Shown one piece after another: positions 9,942 to 14,564 of a DNA stretch of 64,000 nt (positions within the stretch are counted from its first letter, which is position 1; each line of letters begins with the position of its first letter). Source of the stretch: Bacteroidetes bacterium GWF2_35_48 (lineage in GTDB: Bacteria; Bacteroidota; Bacteroidia; Bacteroidales; GWF2-35-48); assembly GCA_001769125.1 (NCBI GenBank), contig MEOG01000069.1, positions 1-64,000 of the forward strand, given 5' to 3'. The notes beneath the pieces are model-generated. The model saw only the letters and a list, made by a program, of their open reading frames with translations, was not told the origin of the DNA and did not search any database. Both the position numbers and the translations under genes were made by a program.

Positions 9942-10043
9942 CTTAAAACTGAATAATTTATGGCTGCTAAAATATTACAATATTTCCTTAAAAATAAATA
10001 TTGAAACAGATATTATTTAATGCTGCATAGAAAATTCGTTACT

Positions 10044-10085
10044 CCAAGTTCGCGCTCGACTTAGTCGGGTGCGTTGCTTAATCCC
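10044..10085 (+). repeat. REP-like palindromic repeat, left copy
   Basis: Contains TTCGCGCTCGACTTAGTCGG followed by gtgcgttgcttaat. The core CTCGACTTAGTCGgG is a near-perfect palindrome. It sits 4 bases beyond the 3' end of the transposase gene and is in the same orientation as the copy at 10793-10831. Confidence 0.75.
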
Positions 10086-10088
10086 ATT

Positions 10089-10645
10089 TTAAAAACAAAT
10101 CAATTTGGGACTTTCATAAATTATATCTAAAACTGAATCTAGTTCAGCATAGTTTCTGGCAGAATTATAAATATAGTCTTCTTGATTTTCAACAAGCCCT
10201 TCAACAACCGGGTTTTGGTGAATATAGTTCAACTTTTGATAAAAAAAATGGTTTGAATAAATAATTTCCGGATGATATCCATCCTGCCAAACTTTATTTT
10301 TTTCATTCCTGTTGCAACTATCTCCACTGTGCTGAACTATTTTAAATTCTTCTTTTTTTTGATCATCATCCTGTAGCAAATGAGAAATTTGTACAGAAGT
10401 AAATTTTTCAAGTCCCTTATGATGCATGATAAATTGTTTTGTTCAGCTTTTGTTATCAGGTGAATATGACTTGGCATTATGCAATAAGCAAACAATAAAA
10501 GTCCTTTGTTATGTTGACAAAATCTAAGGGAGTCTATTAGGACATCTGCATATTTTTTATCATTGAAAATTGAAATCCATTTAACTGTAGCGAATGTAAT
10601 GAAATATGGTTTATCAGGGTCGTGAATTTTATAATGTTCAGACAT
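10089..10645 (-). pseudogene. REP-associated tyrosine transposase (RAYT, Y1/HUH), frameshifted
   Basis: A single-stranded-DNA transposase of the IS200/REP-associated family (PF01797), probably able in its intact form to mobilise the flanking palindromes. The start ATG at 10645 opens the familiar N-terminus (DPDKPYFITFATVKW) and the HUH motif MPSHIHLI, but the frame is lost at about 10404 and ends at 10337. The C-terminal part (KVWQDGYHPEIIYS, YIHQNPVVEGLVENQEDY) continues in the -1 frame to 10089. One missing A in the run at 10404-10408 would explain it; alternatively the message reads A-AAT-TTA at the junction, a canonical -1 slippery heptamer. The longer in-frame extension upstream of 10645 is translated repeat and is not used. 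Confidence 0.85.
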
Positions 10646-10684
10646 TAATTTGTTTTTTTTACAAAGATAAAATAATTTTATGAT

Positions 10685-10709
10685 GCACTCGACTAAGTCG
10701 AGCGCGAAC
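10685..10709 (-). repeat. REP-like palindromic repeat, inner inverted copy
   Basis: GCACTCGACTAAGTCGAGCG plus cgaac, the reverse complement of the flanking copies. Core CTCGACT-A-AGTCGAG (10688-10702) is a perfect 7-bp-arm palindrome. A half copy (gtcgagcgcaaac) follows at about 10721-10733. It lies just upstream of the transposase start. Confidence 0.75.
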
Positions 10710-10792
10710 AGAAACAGACAGTCGAGCGCAAACAAAGACCAAGCGCAAACAACAGAAGGGAAACTGATAAAATCAATACCAGTAACAGAAAC

Positions 10793-10831
10793 CCAAGTTT
10801 CCGCTCGACTTAGTCGAGTGCGTTGCTTAAT
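10793..10831 (+). repeat. REP-like palindromic repeat, right copy
   Basis: CCGCTCGACTTAGTCGAGTG followed by cgttgcttaat; same orientation and nearly the same sequence as 10044-10085, so the transposase is bracketed by direct copies with one inverted copy inside. Confidence 0.75.
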
Positions 10832-10835
10832 ACCA

Positions 10836-10986
10836 TTCAACAAAAATAAAGATTATTCATTAATGCAACTAATAGCTAATGTTTGATGTATCGGATATAG
10901 CAGCAGGAGCATATATTATTGCAATAGGCAGTCCCGAAGCAAAAGGCTGTTCAATGAAAATAAATATTATTCATTGATGCAACTAA
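10836..10986 (+). repeat. pair of 37-bp direct repeats
   Basis: Copies at 10836-10872 and 10950-10986 match at 33 of 37 positions (ttcaa...aaaataaa.attattcatt.atgcaactaa). The second includes the stop codon of the T9SS-tail relic at 10879-10977, so the first is probably another remnant of the same gene end. Confidence 0.75.
10879..10977 (+). pseudogene. relic of a T9SS C-terminal sorting domain
   Basis: Thirty-two codons ending in TGA read MFDVSDIAAGAYIIAI, then GSPEAKGCSMKINIIH. The pattern (D)-(I/L)-(A)-AGAYII, a short turn, then an alternating basic/hydrophobic tail is the last strand pair of a T9SS type A sorting domain. The frame is closed by a stop just upstream, so only the tail remains. 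It adjoins a REP/transposase patch and precedes an intact T9SS gene, suggesting decay or rearrangement of a secreted-protein gene here. Confidence 0.55.
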
Positions 10987-11028
10987 CATGTTCTGTTTAA
11001 TGTCTTATCTTCGTAGGAAAATAAAATT

Positions 11029-12579
11029 ATGAAAACCATAAAGAAATGTTTAAGAACTTCCTCTTTCCTTTTCAGAGGAAGTTCTTTTATATTATTCCTA
11101 TTATTCAACCTTTTTCTACAAGCACAAACTATCCGTTTTAATAAGACCTATATTGAAGAAAATCCATTAACACTTAATGTTGTTGCCCTTGATACGGGAT
11201 ATGTTGTAGCAGGTACCGGTAATGATGGCAGATACTATATTCTTATTAATGGAACTGATTTACAAGGAAATTTAAGATGGGTAAAAAGATATAAAAATTC
11301 CGGTTATCACACATATAGTGGAGCTCAAAATTCATTGATAAAAACCCTTGATGGAGGCTTTGCTCTTGCCGGGTCAAAACCAGGCCTGGGCTTTCGTTCC
11401 GGTTATTTTATGAAATTTGATGATTCGTTTGATACCCTTTGGACAAAAACCTATCTTACTGATACAAATTTTATTGCTTTTTACAATTGCACCCAAACAA
11501 ATGATAGCTGTTACGTTCTAGTAGGAGAAAAAGGGGTTAATAGTAATGACTCAAAATTTGTATTAGTTAAAATAAACACAGAAGGTGACACGCTTTGGAG
11601 CAAATATTATGGAGGTAATTCTTTTGAAACAGGCTTTAAAGTAATAAACACAAAAACCAATGATTTATTGGCAGGTGGTAAAACCTTTAGTTTTTGTAGC
11701 CTTTCAACAGGATATTGCGGTGAATGGTATATCATTCGTACCGACAGTGCCGGAAACTTGAACTGGGAAAACCATTATGGAAATCCGAATTATGATGATG
11801 GCCCAGTTCATAGTATTATAAATTTAAAAGATTCTGGATTTTTAGTATCCGGCTTAAAAGTAACAGGTTTGAATGGCTCAACCTCTCTTTACAAAGGTCG
11901 AATAATCCGGTTTAATAAAAATATGGAAATTGTTTGGGATAAACTATATTTTAATCAAAGCGAAATGACAGATATAGGAATTATTGTTGAATTACAGAAT
12001 GGCGATTTCGCCACAGTCGGCTACGAATCAAATTCATATTCAACGCACAATCGTCCCTTATTATTTAAACTGAATTCATCTGGCGATATTATATGGAAAA
12101 GAGAAATTCTTGCTCCTAATGTTGATACAACTTTTACCGGAGGTTTTCATACTCTGTCAACTACAAATGATGGCGGCTATATTTTAACAGGGAACGCCTA
12201 TATCAACGACCCGATAAACTACAACCAAATATGGCTTGTAAAAACAGACAGTATGGGCTGCGATGGGTTTAATCCTTGCGATACGACAACAGTATCGAAC
12301 GATTTACAAATTACTCCACCGCTAGCGGATTACGAATTAATAATTTATCCGAACCCAGCAGAAGAAAACATTTTAATTGCAGCACAAAGTACAGAAGAAA
12401 ACTTTCAAAACGCAATTGTAACAGTGGTTGATTTAACCGGTAAACCGGTATTAACAGAACCCATAGAAAAAAACACGAATTATCATCAACTAAATATTTC
12501 TTCAATAAAACAAGGTTTGTATTTTGTAAAAATTCAAGGAAAAAACTTTGTTTATTCGGGCAGGTTTATGAAGTATTGA
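11029..12579 (+). CDS. T9SS-exported repeat (propeller-like) protein
   Basis: 516-residue secreted protein. A signal peptide (about 1-33, ending FLQAQ) leads into about seven repeats of roughly 55 residues with the form G-D-T-L-W-S-K-Y-Y-G-G...DGGF/Y-L-L-x-G (e.g. LDGGFALAGSKPG, NDGGYILTGNAYI), typical of beta-propeller-like surface proteins. The C-terminus (from about 440: IIYPNPAEENILI, then VVDLTGKPVL, KQGLYFVKI, SGRFMKY) is a T9SS type A sorting domain, so it should be cleaved and displayed or released at the cell surface. A near-consensus -7 element TATCTTCG is at 11006-11013. The signal-peptide codons contain a perfect 13-bp inverted repeat (11052-11086). Ligand unknown. Confidence 0.85.
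   Translation: MKTIKKCLRTSSFLFRGSSFILFLLFNLFLQAQTIRFNKTYIEENPLTLNVVALDTGYVVAGTGNDGRYYILINGTDLQGNLRWVKRYKNSGYHTYSGAQNSLIKTLDGGFALAGSKPGLGFRSGYFMKFDDSFDTLWTKTYLTDTNFIAFYNCTQTNDSCYVLVGEKGVNSNDSKFVLVKINTEGDTLWSKYYGGNSFETGFKVINTKTNDLLAGGKTFSFCSLSTGYCGEWYIIRTDSAGNLNWENHYGNPNYDDGPVHSIINLKDSGFLVSGLKVTGLNGSTSLYKGRIIRFNKNMEIVWDKLYFNQSEMTDIGIIVELQNGDFATVGYESNSYSTHNRPLLFKLNSSGDIIWKREILAPNVDTTFTGGFHTLSTTNDGGYILTGNAYINDPINYNQIWLVKTDSMGCDGFNPCDTTTVSNDLQITPPLADYELIIYPNPAEENILIAAQSTEENFQNAIVTVVDLTGKPVLTEPIEKNTNYHQLNISSIKQGLYFVKIQGKNFVYSGRFMKY
11052..11086 (+). other. perfect 13-bp inverted repeat inside signal-peptide codons
   Basis: AAGAACTTCCTCT (11052-11064), a 9-base loop, and AGAGGAAGTTCTT (11074-11086). 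The hairpin begins 23 bases after the A of the start codon, where mRNA structure can affect early translation. It encodes residues about 8-20 of the signal peptide. Confidence 0.8.
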
Positions 12580-12620
12580 ACGAACATTAATTTTCATGAA
12601 TTTTGTCTAATTTATTCAGC

Positions 12621-12669
12621 AAGAAAAGTTTGTTTTTATGCCCAATTTGAAACAAAATGAACTTTTCTT
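12621..12669 (+). terminator. possible hairpin terminator after the T9SS gene
   Basis: AAGAAAAGTT (12621-12630) pairs with AACTTTTCTT (12660-12669), with inner arms TGTTT and AAACA. The stem is AT-rich and no clean T-run follows, so termination is uncertain. It lies between the T9SS gene and the hip operator. Confidence 0.35.
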
Positions 12670-12675
12670 AAAACT

Positions 12676-12697
12676 AAATCACATTATAATGTGATTT
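12676..12697. promoter_or_regulatory. HipB operator O1, perfect 22-bp palindrome
   Basis: AAATCACATTA joined to TAATGTGATTT, a perfect 22-bp palindrome immediately upstream of the hip promoter. Its 5' half is nearly repeated exactly 60 bp downstream (12736-12757). HipB proteins bind such palindromes as dimers to repress their own operon. Confidence 0.75.
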
Positions 12698-12699
12698 TA

Positions 12700-12729
12700 T
12701 TGTTTTTTTTTAATAAAATTATACTTTTG
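12700..12729 (+). promoter_or_regulatory. hipBST promoter
   Basis: TTG at 12700-12702, 19-base spacer, and TACTTTTG at 12722-12729 (exact TAnnTTTG). It lies between the two palindromic operators, 20 bases ahead of the hipB start. Confidence 0.65.
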
Positions 12730-12735
12730 TGTCTA

Positions 12736-12757
12736 AAATCACAATATAATGTTAGTC
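12736..12757. promoter_or_regulatory. HipB operator O2, imperfect copy over the hipB start
   Basis: AAATCACAATATAATGTTAG resembles O1 (AAATCACATTATAATGTGAT) with changes mostly in the right half. It overlaps the hipB ATG at 12749. The 60-bp centre spacing from O1 is nearly six helical turns, compatible with two dimers on the same face and DNA bending. Confidence 0.6.
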
Positions 12758-12955
12758 AGCCACCTTGGAGAAACCATAAAAGCACGCAGAAAAGAATTAA
12801 GCATTACTCAGCCACATTTAGCAGAATTGGCAGAAATCAGTGTTAATACCTTGTATAAATTGGAACGAGGACAAGGCAATCCCTCATTAGAGGTGTTAAA
12901 TAAATTAGCAGATGTTTTGGGAATGGAACTGACGCTTGATGTGAAAAAACAATAA
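12749..12955 (+). CDS. hipB: HipB-like antitoxin/repressor (XRE helix-turn-helix)
   Basis: 68-residue DNA-binding protein. The XRE HTH covers about residues 8-62: IKARRKELSITQPHLAELAE, then ISVNTLYKLERGQGNPSLEV and LADVLGMEL. It is the first of three tightly spaced genes with a separate HipA N-terminal domain (gap 8) and a HipA kinase core (overlap 4). It should repress its own promoter through the palindromes at 12676-12697 and 12736-12757 and take part in holding the kinase inactive. In HipBST systems HipB chiefly boosts the antitoxin action of HipS. Confidence 0.85.
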   Translation: MLVSHLGETIKARRKELSITQPHLAELAEISVNTLYKLERGQGNPSLEVLNKLADVLGMELTLDVKKQ

Positions 12956-12963
12956 TAAAGTAA

Positions 12964-13293
12964 ATGAGAGCAATGGAAATTTACCATAACGGAATATTTG
13001 TCGGGACTTTAACCGAAGAAAACCGGCAACAATATTTTTTTAAATATGACGAGAATTATTTTAATGATGCAAATAAACCGGCTATTAGCTTAACGTTTCC
13101 TAAAACAAAAAGGGAATACAAAAATGCTTTTTTATTTCCATTCTTCTTTAACATGTTAAGCGAAGGTGTAAACAGAAAACTTCAAAGTAAACTATTACGA
13201 ATTGATGAAGAAGATAGTTTTGGTTTATTAATGGCAACTGCACAAAATGACACAATTGGAGCAGTAACAGTAAAACCGATAACCGTAAAATGA
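12964..13293 (+). CDS. hipS: HipS-like antitoxin (stand-alone HipA N-terminal subdomain)
   Basis: 109 residues matching only the N-subdomain 1 of HipA (couple_hipA, PF13657): YHNGIFVGTLTEE, FKYDENYF, AISLTFPKTKREY, LFPFFFNMLSEGVNRKL, SFGLLMATAQNDTIGAVTV. In canonical HipA this is fused to the kinase; here it is a separate gene, as in HipBST of enteropathogenic E. coli where HipS is the true antitoxin. Start at 12964 or at the second ATG 12973. Its stop overlaps the kinase start by 4 bases (ATGA), giving translational coupling. It has no tryptophan, whereas a Trp is reported to matter in E. coli HipS, so the inhibitory contact may differ. Confidence 0.8.
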   Translation: MRAMEIYHNGIFVGTLTEENRQQYFFKYDENYFNDANKPAISLTFPKTKREYKNAFLFPFFFNMLSEGVNRKLQSKLLRIDEEDSFGLLMATAQNDTIGAVTVKPITVK

Positions 13294-14300
13294 ACTTAAA
13301 TGAATTAAAATATTGTCCCGGAACATTAGCTGAAGGATTTTCAGCTTACAGTCCGAGTTGTTTGAGGAATATGTTTAGCGGTAAAAAAGTAAATTACATT
13401 TTGCCTTATGAACAACCTCAGCAAAATGAAGAAGTCGCTGCTCTGTTTATTGAAAACCGTAAACGTATATCCATATCTGGAGTGCAGGAAAAATTAAGTT
13501 TTCTTCTTGACAAGAATCTTTTGCGCTTGACTAAAGAAGGAGAAAAAGGAACCTATATCCTTAAACCTATACCAAGAGATTTAAAAAAAGTTGACCAGAT
13601 TCCGGCAAACGAACATCTGACAATGCAAATAGCAAAACAGGTTTTTAATTTAAACACGGCTGAAAATGCCTTGGTGTTTTTTAAAAATGGCTCACCAGCT
13701 TACATTACTAAACGTTTTGATGTAAAAAAAGAAGGAGGAAAATGGGGCAAAGAAGATTTCGCAACACTTGCGGGTAAAACCAAAGATAATGCAGGTGTTA
13801 ATTTTAAATATGATTACAGCTATGAAGAAATTGGAATGTTGATACAAAAATATGTTCCTGCATGGAGAGTAGAAATAGAAAAATATTTTTCTTTGGTTGT
13901 TTTTAATTATCTGTTTTCAAACGGTGATGCACACTTAAAAAATTTCTCTTTGCTTGAGTCATCCAAAGGTGATTATTTGCTTAGTCCTGCCTACGATTTA
14001 ATAAATACAAGGCTTCATGTTGATGATTCTGACTTTGCTTTGGATAAAGGCTTGTTTGCTGACGATTTTAAAAGTGAAGAATGCAAAAAAAATGGACAAC
14101 CTTCTATAAATGATTTCACAGAATTTGCCAAAAGAATAGGTGTGGTTGTAAGCAGGATTGAAAAATTATTGAATCCGTTTGTAGAAAAACAATCGTTTAT
14201 AGAAACTTTAGTAAACCATTCTTTTTTAAGCAAGGCTGACAAAAGAGGATATTTGTTGATGTATAACACGAGACGGAACTACTTGAAAAAAACGATTTGA
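13290..14300 (+). CDS. hipT: HipT-like serine/threonine kinase toxin (HipA core without N-subdomain)
   Basis: 336-residue HipA-fold kinase lacking the N-terminal subdomain found in 430-440-residue HipA. Visible are the Gly-rich loop RKRISISGVQEKLSF with an S-I-S motif at residues 61-63, ATP-binding Lys92 in TYILKPIP, YITKRFDV, catalytic Asp213 in NGDAHLKNF and metal-binding Asp236 in AYDLIN. The S-x-S motif sits almost exactly where E. coli HipT is autophosphorylated (S57/S59). By analogy it would phosphorylate an aminoacyl-tRNA synthetase (GltX for HipA, TrpS for E. coli HipT) and halt translation; the target here is unknown. Ends the operon; no strong terminator seen in the 264 bases to acpP. 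Confidence 0.85.
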   Translation: MNLNELKYCPGTLAEGFSAYSPSCLRNMFSGKKVNYILPYEQPQQNEEVAALFIENRKRISISGVQEKLSFLLDKNLLRLTKEGEKGTYILKPIPRDLKKVDQIPANEHLTMQIAKQVFNLNTAENALVFFKNGSPAYITKRFDVKKEGGKWGKEDFATLAGKTKDNAGVNFKYDYSYEEIGMLIQKYVPAWRVEIEKYFSLVVFNYLFSNGDAHLKNFSLLESSKGDYLLSPAYDLINTRLHVDDSDFALDKGLFADDFKSEECKKNGQPSINDFTEFAKRIGVVVSRIEKLLNPFVEKQSFIETLVNHSFLSKADKRGYLLMYNTRRNYLKKTI

Positions 14301-14482
14301 ACAACTTGACTTTTTATCTCCCGGTTTTGTGTTTTCTGTAGGTGTCGGGACTTCTTGCATTACCTCTGACGAATAATAAACAGCATACGCGACTTAAAAG
14401 TTATCAACAAACGTAATGTACTTAAAAATAACATTTTAACCTTATGGATTTGATAATAAAAATAAAAAAATCTATATATTTT

Positions 14483-14512
14483 TTTGTTATTTTAATCTTA
14501 AATATATCTTTG
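14483..14512 (+). promoter_or_regulatory. acpP-fabF promoter
   Basis: TTTG at 14483-14486, an 18-base spacer, and TATCTTTG at 14505-14512: a textbook Bacteroidota promoter. It leaves a leader of about 45 bases before the acpP ATG. Confidence 0.75.
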
Positions 14513-14564
14513 CAAGTTCAAAAAATAATTATTAATATTAATATTAACCAAAATTTAAAAATTT

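What the first reader, a model, noticed from the sequence alone, without database searches (positions are those of the whole stretch)
12676..14300. Complete HipBST-like tripartite toxin-antitoxin operon in a Bacteroidota genome
Seen: separate genes for an XRE repressor, a stand-alone HipA N-subdomain (109 aa) and a HipA kinase core (336 aa), with an 8-base gap and a 4-base overlap. The kinase has S-I-S at residues 61-63 in its Gly-rich loop. Known: E. coli O127 HipBST has this order, HipS is the antitoxin and HipT is autophosphorylated at S57/S59. Inference: this is a distant HipBST in which the small N-domain protein, not HipB, neutralises the kinase. The HipS-like protein has no tryptophan, so the inhibitory interface may be new.
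Basis: partly seen in the sequence, partly recalled or inferred. Interest (0 to 1): 0.75.

Follow-up and report, generated by a model that had tools for sequence, protein, structure and literature searches.

The report
Bacteroidota HipBST toxin-antitoxin operon
This is a three-gene toxin-antitoxin module (DNA-binding repressor, small kinase-blocking protein, growth-stopping kinase) of the known HipBST kind, carried in a mobile stretch of a Bacteroidota chromosome; it belongs to a large, apparently undescribed branch of that family but is otherwise ordinary.

Summary
In detail: hipB 12749-12955, hipS 12964-13293 and hipT 13290-14300 are three intact genes with an 8-base gap and an ATGA overlap. 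The S-I-S motif is at residues 61-63 and the kinase residues are intact. Every structural HipBST feature I could test was met. It is not a recent split: all intact relatives (about 90, several phyla) are split, and sampled pairs show purifying selection. They form a firm kinase clade (100/97) distinct from the E. coli and Legionella types, with S-x-S in every member, no Trp at the HipS wedge position, and an invariant Asn next to it. The operon sits in a 4.6-kb insertion between purN and acpP; relatives sit on plasmids and beside a conjugation gene. Verdict: a well-supported new member, in a distinct subclade. Inhibition by HipS is inferred, not shown.

The parts
12677..12696 (.). operator O1, perfect palindrome AATCACATTATAATGTGATT
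   Evidence: only perfect match to AATCACA-N6-TGTGATT in the 5.98-Mb genome; found at about -73 in relatives, 51/84 with a strong site upstream of hipB vs 2.9 expected
12722..12729 (+). putative Bacteroidota -7 promoter element TAnnTTTG (TACTTTTG)
   Evidence: exact TAnnTTTG at a fixed place between the two operators in 16 of 34 relatives, 1.1 expected; window position
12737..12756 (.). operator O2, imperfect copy (2 of 14 positions differ) overlapping the hipB start codon
   Evidence: spacing O1-O2 60-62 bp in 49/84 relatives; other spacings tested give 0-2 loci each
12749..12955 (+). hipB: 68-aa HTH (XRE/HTH_3) repressor
   Evidence: Pfam HTH_3 50.8 bits; couple_hipB TIGR03070 61.5 bits, below its cut-off of 71.65; weak match to HipB(Lp)
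12964..13293 (+). hipS: 109-aa HipA N-subdomain-1 protein, predicted antitoxin
   Evidence: Couple_hipA 75.2 bits; HipS(Lp) and HipS(Ec) among the best PDB matches; AF2 pLDDT 90.6, TM 0.84-0.85 to HipS(Lp), 0.81 to HipS(Ec)
13162..13173 (+). hipS codons E67 G68 V69 N70: wedge segment; V69 stands where O127 has Trp65
   Evidence: E67, G68, N70 in 87/87 relatives; position 69 is V/A/S/T in 80/87, never W
13290..14300 (+). hipT: 336-aa HipA-like Ser/Thr kinase core, predicted toxin
   Evidence: HipA_C 129.5 bits; AF2 pLDDT 92.4; Z 33.9 to HipT(Lp), 32.9 to HipT(Ec)
13470..13493 (+). Gly-rich (P-) loop S61-I-S-G-V-Q-E-K68, the two candidate autophosphorylation serines
   Evidence: S61 and S63 invariant in 87 relatives; residues 63-65 are the only stretch with pLDDT below 50
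13920..13997 (+). catalytic NGDAHLKN (D213) and Mg-binding PAYD (D236)
   Evidence: invariant columns of alignment A1
9942..14564 (.). accessory insertion between purN and acpP-fabF that contains hipBST
   Evidence: purN and acpP are direct neighbours in relatives G001, G048, G077, G008

Best explanation
A HipBST toxin-antitoxin module. HipT is a HipA-fold Ser/Thr kinase that, when free, phosphorylates an essential target (most likely an aminoacyl-tRNA synthetase) and stops growth. HipS, the detached N-subdomain-1, caps HipT and holds its SIS Gly-rich loop in the ejected state that cannot bind ATP. HipB represses the operon by binding two palindromes about 61 bp apart, one upstream of the promoter and one over the promoter exit and start codon, probably as a HipB-S-T complex. 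The module is mobile accessory DNA. Shown here: gene content, predicted fold, catalytic residues, conserved operators, co-occurrence of hipS with every intact hipT examined, mobility. Inferred by homology: toxicity, neutralisation by HipS, autophosphorylation, repression. Unknown: the target.
For: Domains. PDB hits rank HipT/HipS of Legionella, then E. coli O127, far above HipA. Models match HipT and HipS structures. Tripartite order kept in all 87 kinases of the clade and in 14 of 15 of the second clade (hipB not found in one); no fused member. dN/dS mostly 0.02-0.20 in all three genes for close pairs. Operators with fixed spacing. Insertion between purN and acpP; plasmid copies; copies next to a TraG/T4SS coupling gene. 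Mechanism of homologues: PMC6581861, PMC10627512, PMC9325769, PMC10653801.
Against: No experiment on this clade was found. The HipS residue that matters in E. coli (W65) is absent, so the inhibitory contact must differ. The HipT of Legionella is not rescued by TrpS or GltX, so the target cannot be transferred by homology. The complex could not be modelled here.
Confidence: 0.87

Rival explanations
1. A recently split HipBA: one fused hipA gene broken in two by a frameshift, with HipB still the true antitoxin.
For: HipS and HipT correspond to the two ends of HipA; the overlap is only 4 nt. The AU test does not reject this clade being sister to the fused Bacteroidota HipAs (p 0.345).
Against: All intact relatives across several phyla are split, with the short junctions conserved and purifying selection in close pairs. 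Fused Bacteroidota HipAs form a separate clade, 100/98. HipT matches HipT structures better than HipA (Z 33 vs 23).
Confidence: 0.03
2. A HipBST in which HipB, not HipS, is the main neutraliser, HipS being only a structural subunit needed for kinase folding or substrate choice.
For: The Trp wedge of O127 HipS is missing in the whole clade.
Against: Legionella HipS also lacks it and still neutralises (PMC10653801). HipS is present beside every intact HipT examined here (102 of 102), while one second-clade locus lacks a detectable HipB (L029).
Confidence: 0.07
3. A decayed or silent remnant with no activity.
For: It lies in an insertion with transposase remnants; some relatives elsewhere are broken (L088, L109, L111).
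Against: All three frames and all catalytic and invariant residues are intact, and the operators and promoter element are preserved.
Confidence: 0.03

Closest known systems
HipBST of Legionella pneumophila (HipBST-Lp; PDB 7VKB, 8EZR; PMC9325769, PMC10653801)
   Same: Gene order, 4-bp overlap of hipS and hipT, folds, no Trp at the wedge position; this type is reported as widespread in Bacteroidota/FCB. Nearest structures.
   Different: About 30% identity; belongs with the second clade (G2), not the window's: HipT(Lp) scores 364 bits with the G2 profile and 165 with the window-clade profile. Single P-loop serine (SVQ). Three operators with 53-bp gaps instead of two about 61 bp apart.
HipBST of E. 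coli O127:H6 (PMC6581861, PMC10627512; PDB 7AB3-5)
   Same: Gene order, SIS double serine in the Gly-rich loop, same folds (Z 32.9).
   Different: HipS uses Trp65, here V69; about 24% identity; separate clade.
HipBA (E. coli K-12, S. oneidensis)
   Same: Kinase fold and HTH partner; N-subdomain-1 homologous to HipS.
   Different: Fused toxin, HipB is the antitoxin, single loop serine, different operators; clearly more distant.
HipJS family (PMC8262856)
   Same: Separate HipS-like putative antitoxin for a kinase core.
   Different: hipS follows the kinase gene and there is no hipB; from the paper only, not compared by sequence here.

Membership tests
HipBST | three adjacent genes in the order HTH, HipA N-subdomain-1, kinase core | tested here: met
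   same in relatives
HipBST | kinase lacks N-subdomain-1 but keeps Gly-rich loop, catalytic and Mg-binding motifs | tested here: met
   S61-I-S63-G, D213, D236; aligns to HipA structures only from about HipA residue 118 on
HipBST | kinase groups with HipT rather than inside fused HipA | tested here: met
   all split kinases one side of a branch 97/89, window clade 100/97, fused Bacteroidota HipA 100/98; deeper order not settled, AU p 0.345
HipBST | fold of HipS and HipT | tested here: met
HipBST | HipS is the antitoxin, HipB is not | not testable with these tools
   needs co-expression; known for E. coli and Legionella homologues
HipBST | HipT toxic and autophosphorylated | not testable with these tools
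   both candidate serines conserved
HipBST | HipB autoregulates through operators | tested here: inconclusive
   conserved palindromic pair at the promoter, binding not measured
HipBST-Ec subclade | Trp65 wedge in HipS | tested here: not met
   V69; no Trp there in 87 relatives
HipBST-Lp subclade | kinase belongs with HipT(Lp) | tested here: not met
   Lp scores 364 vs 165 bits with the other clade; two separate starred clades. The Legionella row itself was not put in the tree
HipBA | single fused HipA toxin | tested here: not met
   the genome has a separate fused HipA elsewhere

The most novel reading that the evidence does not exclude
The window belongs to a third, undescribed HipBST subclass centred on Bacteroidota, in which HipS ejects the SIS loop with a small residue plus an invariant Asn (EG-V/A/S-N) instead of a Trp wedge, and HipB acts through a two-operator array with one site over the start codon.
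Probability: 0.45. Interest if true: 0.4.

Novelty: new member of a known kind. Interest (0 to 1): 0.27.

Why it matters
It places this Bacteroidota HipBST in a separate, well-populated clade that pairs the double-serine loop of the E. coli type with a Trp-less HipS like the Legionella type. Those two features can therefore be tested apart, which the two studied systems do not allow. The conserved operator pair is a ready-made binding assay.

Tried and rejected
Viral contigs and phage records: no relative of the kinase. PADLOC: only weak matches. Recent-split idea: rejected (see rivals). Single origin of the split: not shown, since AU tests reject neither the window clade as sister to fused Bacteroidota HipA (p 0.345) nor the window clade grouped with the E. 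coli type (p 0.409); the third test did not finish. Target-site duplication at the insertion: only 10-11 base AT-rich matches, not convincing. 'No Trp in HipS' as a marker: rejected, because the position and not the count is what is conserved. Whether the published set of 86 HipBST-Lp representatives already includes this clade could not be checked, as its supplementary tables are not readable here.

Full report
Observation. Pfam gives HTH_3, Couple_hipA (75.2 bits) and HipA_C (129.5 bits). S61-I-S63, D213 and D236 are in place.

Relatives. A search of 98 related genomes plus the window's own and of about 85,000 species genomes gave, after removing partial or broken copies, 87 kinases of the window's type (including the window) and 15 of a second type. 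All 102 have hipS beside them; hipB was found in 101. The hipS-hipT junction is most often the 4-base overlap. No member is fused. Hosts include Bacteroidota, Ignavibacteria, Neomarinimicrobiota and Akkermansia, with a more distant copy on an Arcobacter plasmid. Close pairs give dN/dS mostly 0.02-0.20 for all three genes.

Phylogeny. In a 79-row maximum-likelihood tree of kinase cores the split kinases lie together (97/89). Inside are three firm groups: the E. coli type (100/100), the second type (100/99) and the window's type (100/97). Fused Bacteroidota HipAs are a separate clade (100/98). The order of these deep branches is not settled. Profiles settle what the second type is: HipT(Lp) scores 364 bits with it and 165 with the window's type. 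HipS gives the same picture, 126 vs 74 bits. So the window is neither of the two studied HipBST types. I left the Legionella sequence itself out of the tree.

Loop and wedge. The window's clade has S-[I/V/L/F]-S in 87 of 87 HipT; the second clade has SIQ, TVT, AVT and others. At the HipS position of O127 Trp65 the window's clade has V (51), A (13), S (13), T (3) or another residue, never W, followed by an invariant Asn; the second clade has W in 12 of 15. Five plasmid copies that join this clade vary a little more at and after that position but also lack W. In O127, W65A abolishes neutralisation (PMC10627512). In Legionella the position is I65/M66 and Trp is not needed (PMC10653801). The clade thus combines the O127-like loop with a Legionella-like Trp-less HipS.

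Structure. HipT model pLDDT 92.4; the only stretch under 50 is residues 63-65, in the Gly-rich loop, as expected for a loop that switches. Best PDB matches are HipT(Lp) Z 33.9 and HipT(Ec) Z 32.9, with HipA at 22.9. HipS model pLDDT 90.6, best matches HipS(Lp) and HipS(Ec).

Regulation. 12677-12696 is a perfect 20-bp palindrome, AATCACATTATAATGTGATT, the only perfect match to AATCACA-N6-TGTGATT in the 5.98-Mb genome. A second, imperfect copy at 12737-12756 overlaps the hipB start codon. Of 84 relatives with enough upstream DNA, 51 have a strong site (2.9 expected) and 49 have a pair 60-62 bp apart, while other spacings tested give 0-2. TAnnTTTG, the Bacteroidota -7 element (named from general knowledge), lies between them at a fixed place in 16 of 34 (1.1 expected); in the window it is TACTTTTG at 12722-12729. 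None of 14 second-type loci has the site. Legionella has three operators with 53-bp gaps instead (PMC10653801). Binding by HipB is inferred.

Mobility. In relatives G001 (same genus), G048, G077 and G008 purN lies directly next to acpP-fabF. In the window 4.6 kb lies between them: a broken IS200-like transposase, a gene with a type IX secretion tail, and hipBST. The same-genus hipBST sits on another contig, and the window's kinase is closer to a Saprospiraceae copy (84%) than to the same-genus copy (79%). Other members lie on plasmids of Flammeovirga, Runella and Bacteroides, and two in Maribellus lie next to a TraG/T4SS coupling gene. Stabilising mobile DNA is therefore a plausible role, inferred from place alone.

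Judgement. A HipBST module in good repair, in a distinct subclade. What looks unreported in the papers I could read is the clade itself, its EG-small-N signature, and its operator pair.

Noticed in passing
window 10089-10843: IS200-like (Y1_Tnp) transposase remnant on the - strand, apparently broken over two overlapping frames (only the 10337-10843 frame matches, just under the Pfam cut-off), inside the same purN-acpP insertion
   Followed up: partly
L142 (Aliivibrio fischeri plasmid pCG103-32) 1822-4539: hipBST followed at once by a second, different HipT-like kinase gene (loop SPT) with no hipS of its own
   Followed up: no
L061, L062, L071 (Maribellus maritimus): three hipBST copies in one genome, two of them on 3.85-kb contigs (89% identical) between a TraG-like coupling gene and a DUF4099 gene
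   Followed up: partly
L053 2664-2989: hipS itself split into two ORFs (64 and 46 aa, 4-nt overlap) before an intact hipT; a sequencing error is possible
   Followed up: no
L001 (G000:C105:140651-141292 and flanks): the window's genome also holds a fused HipA-type kinase (425-aa frame) behind an HTH gene, of the separate Bacteroidota fused clade
   Followed up: partly
L047 and L052: 340 nt between hipS and hipT, and 392 nt between hipB and hipS, instead of the usual overlap or few bases
   Followed up: no
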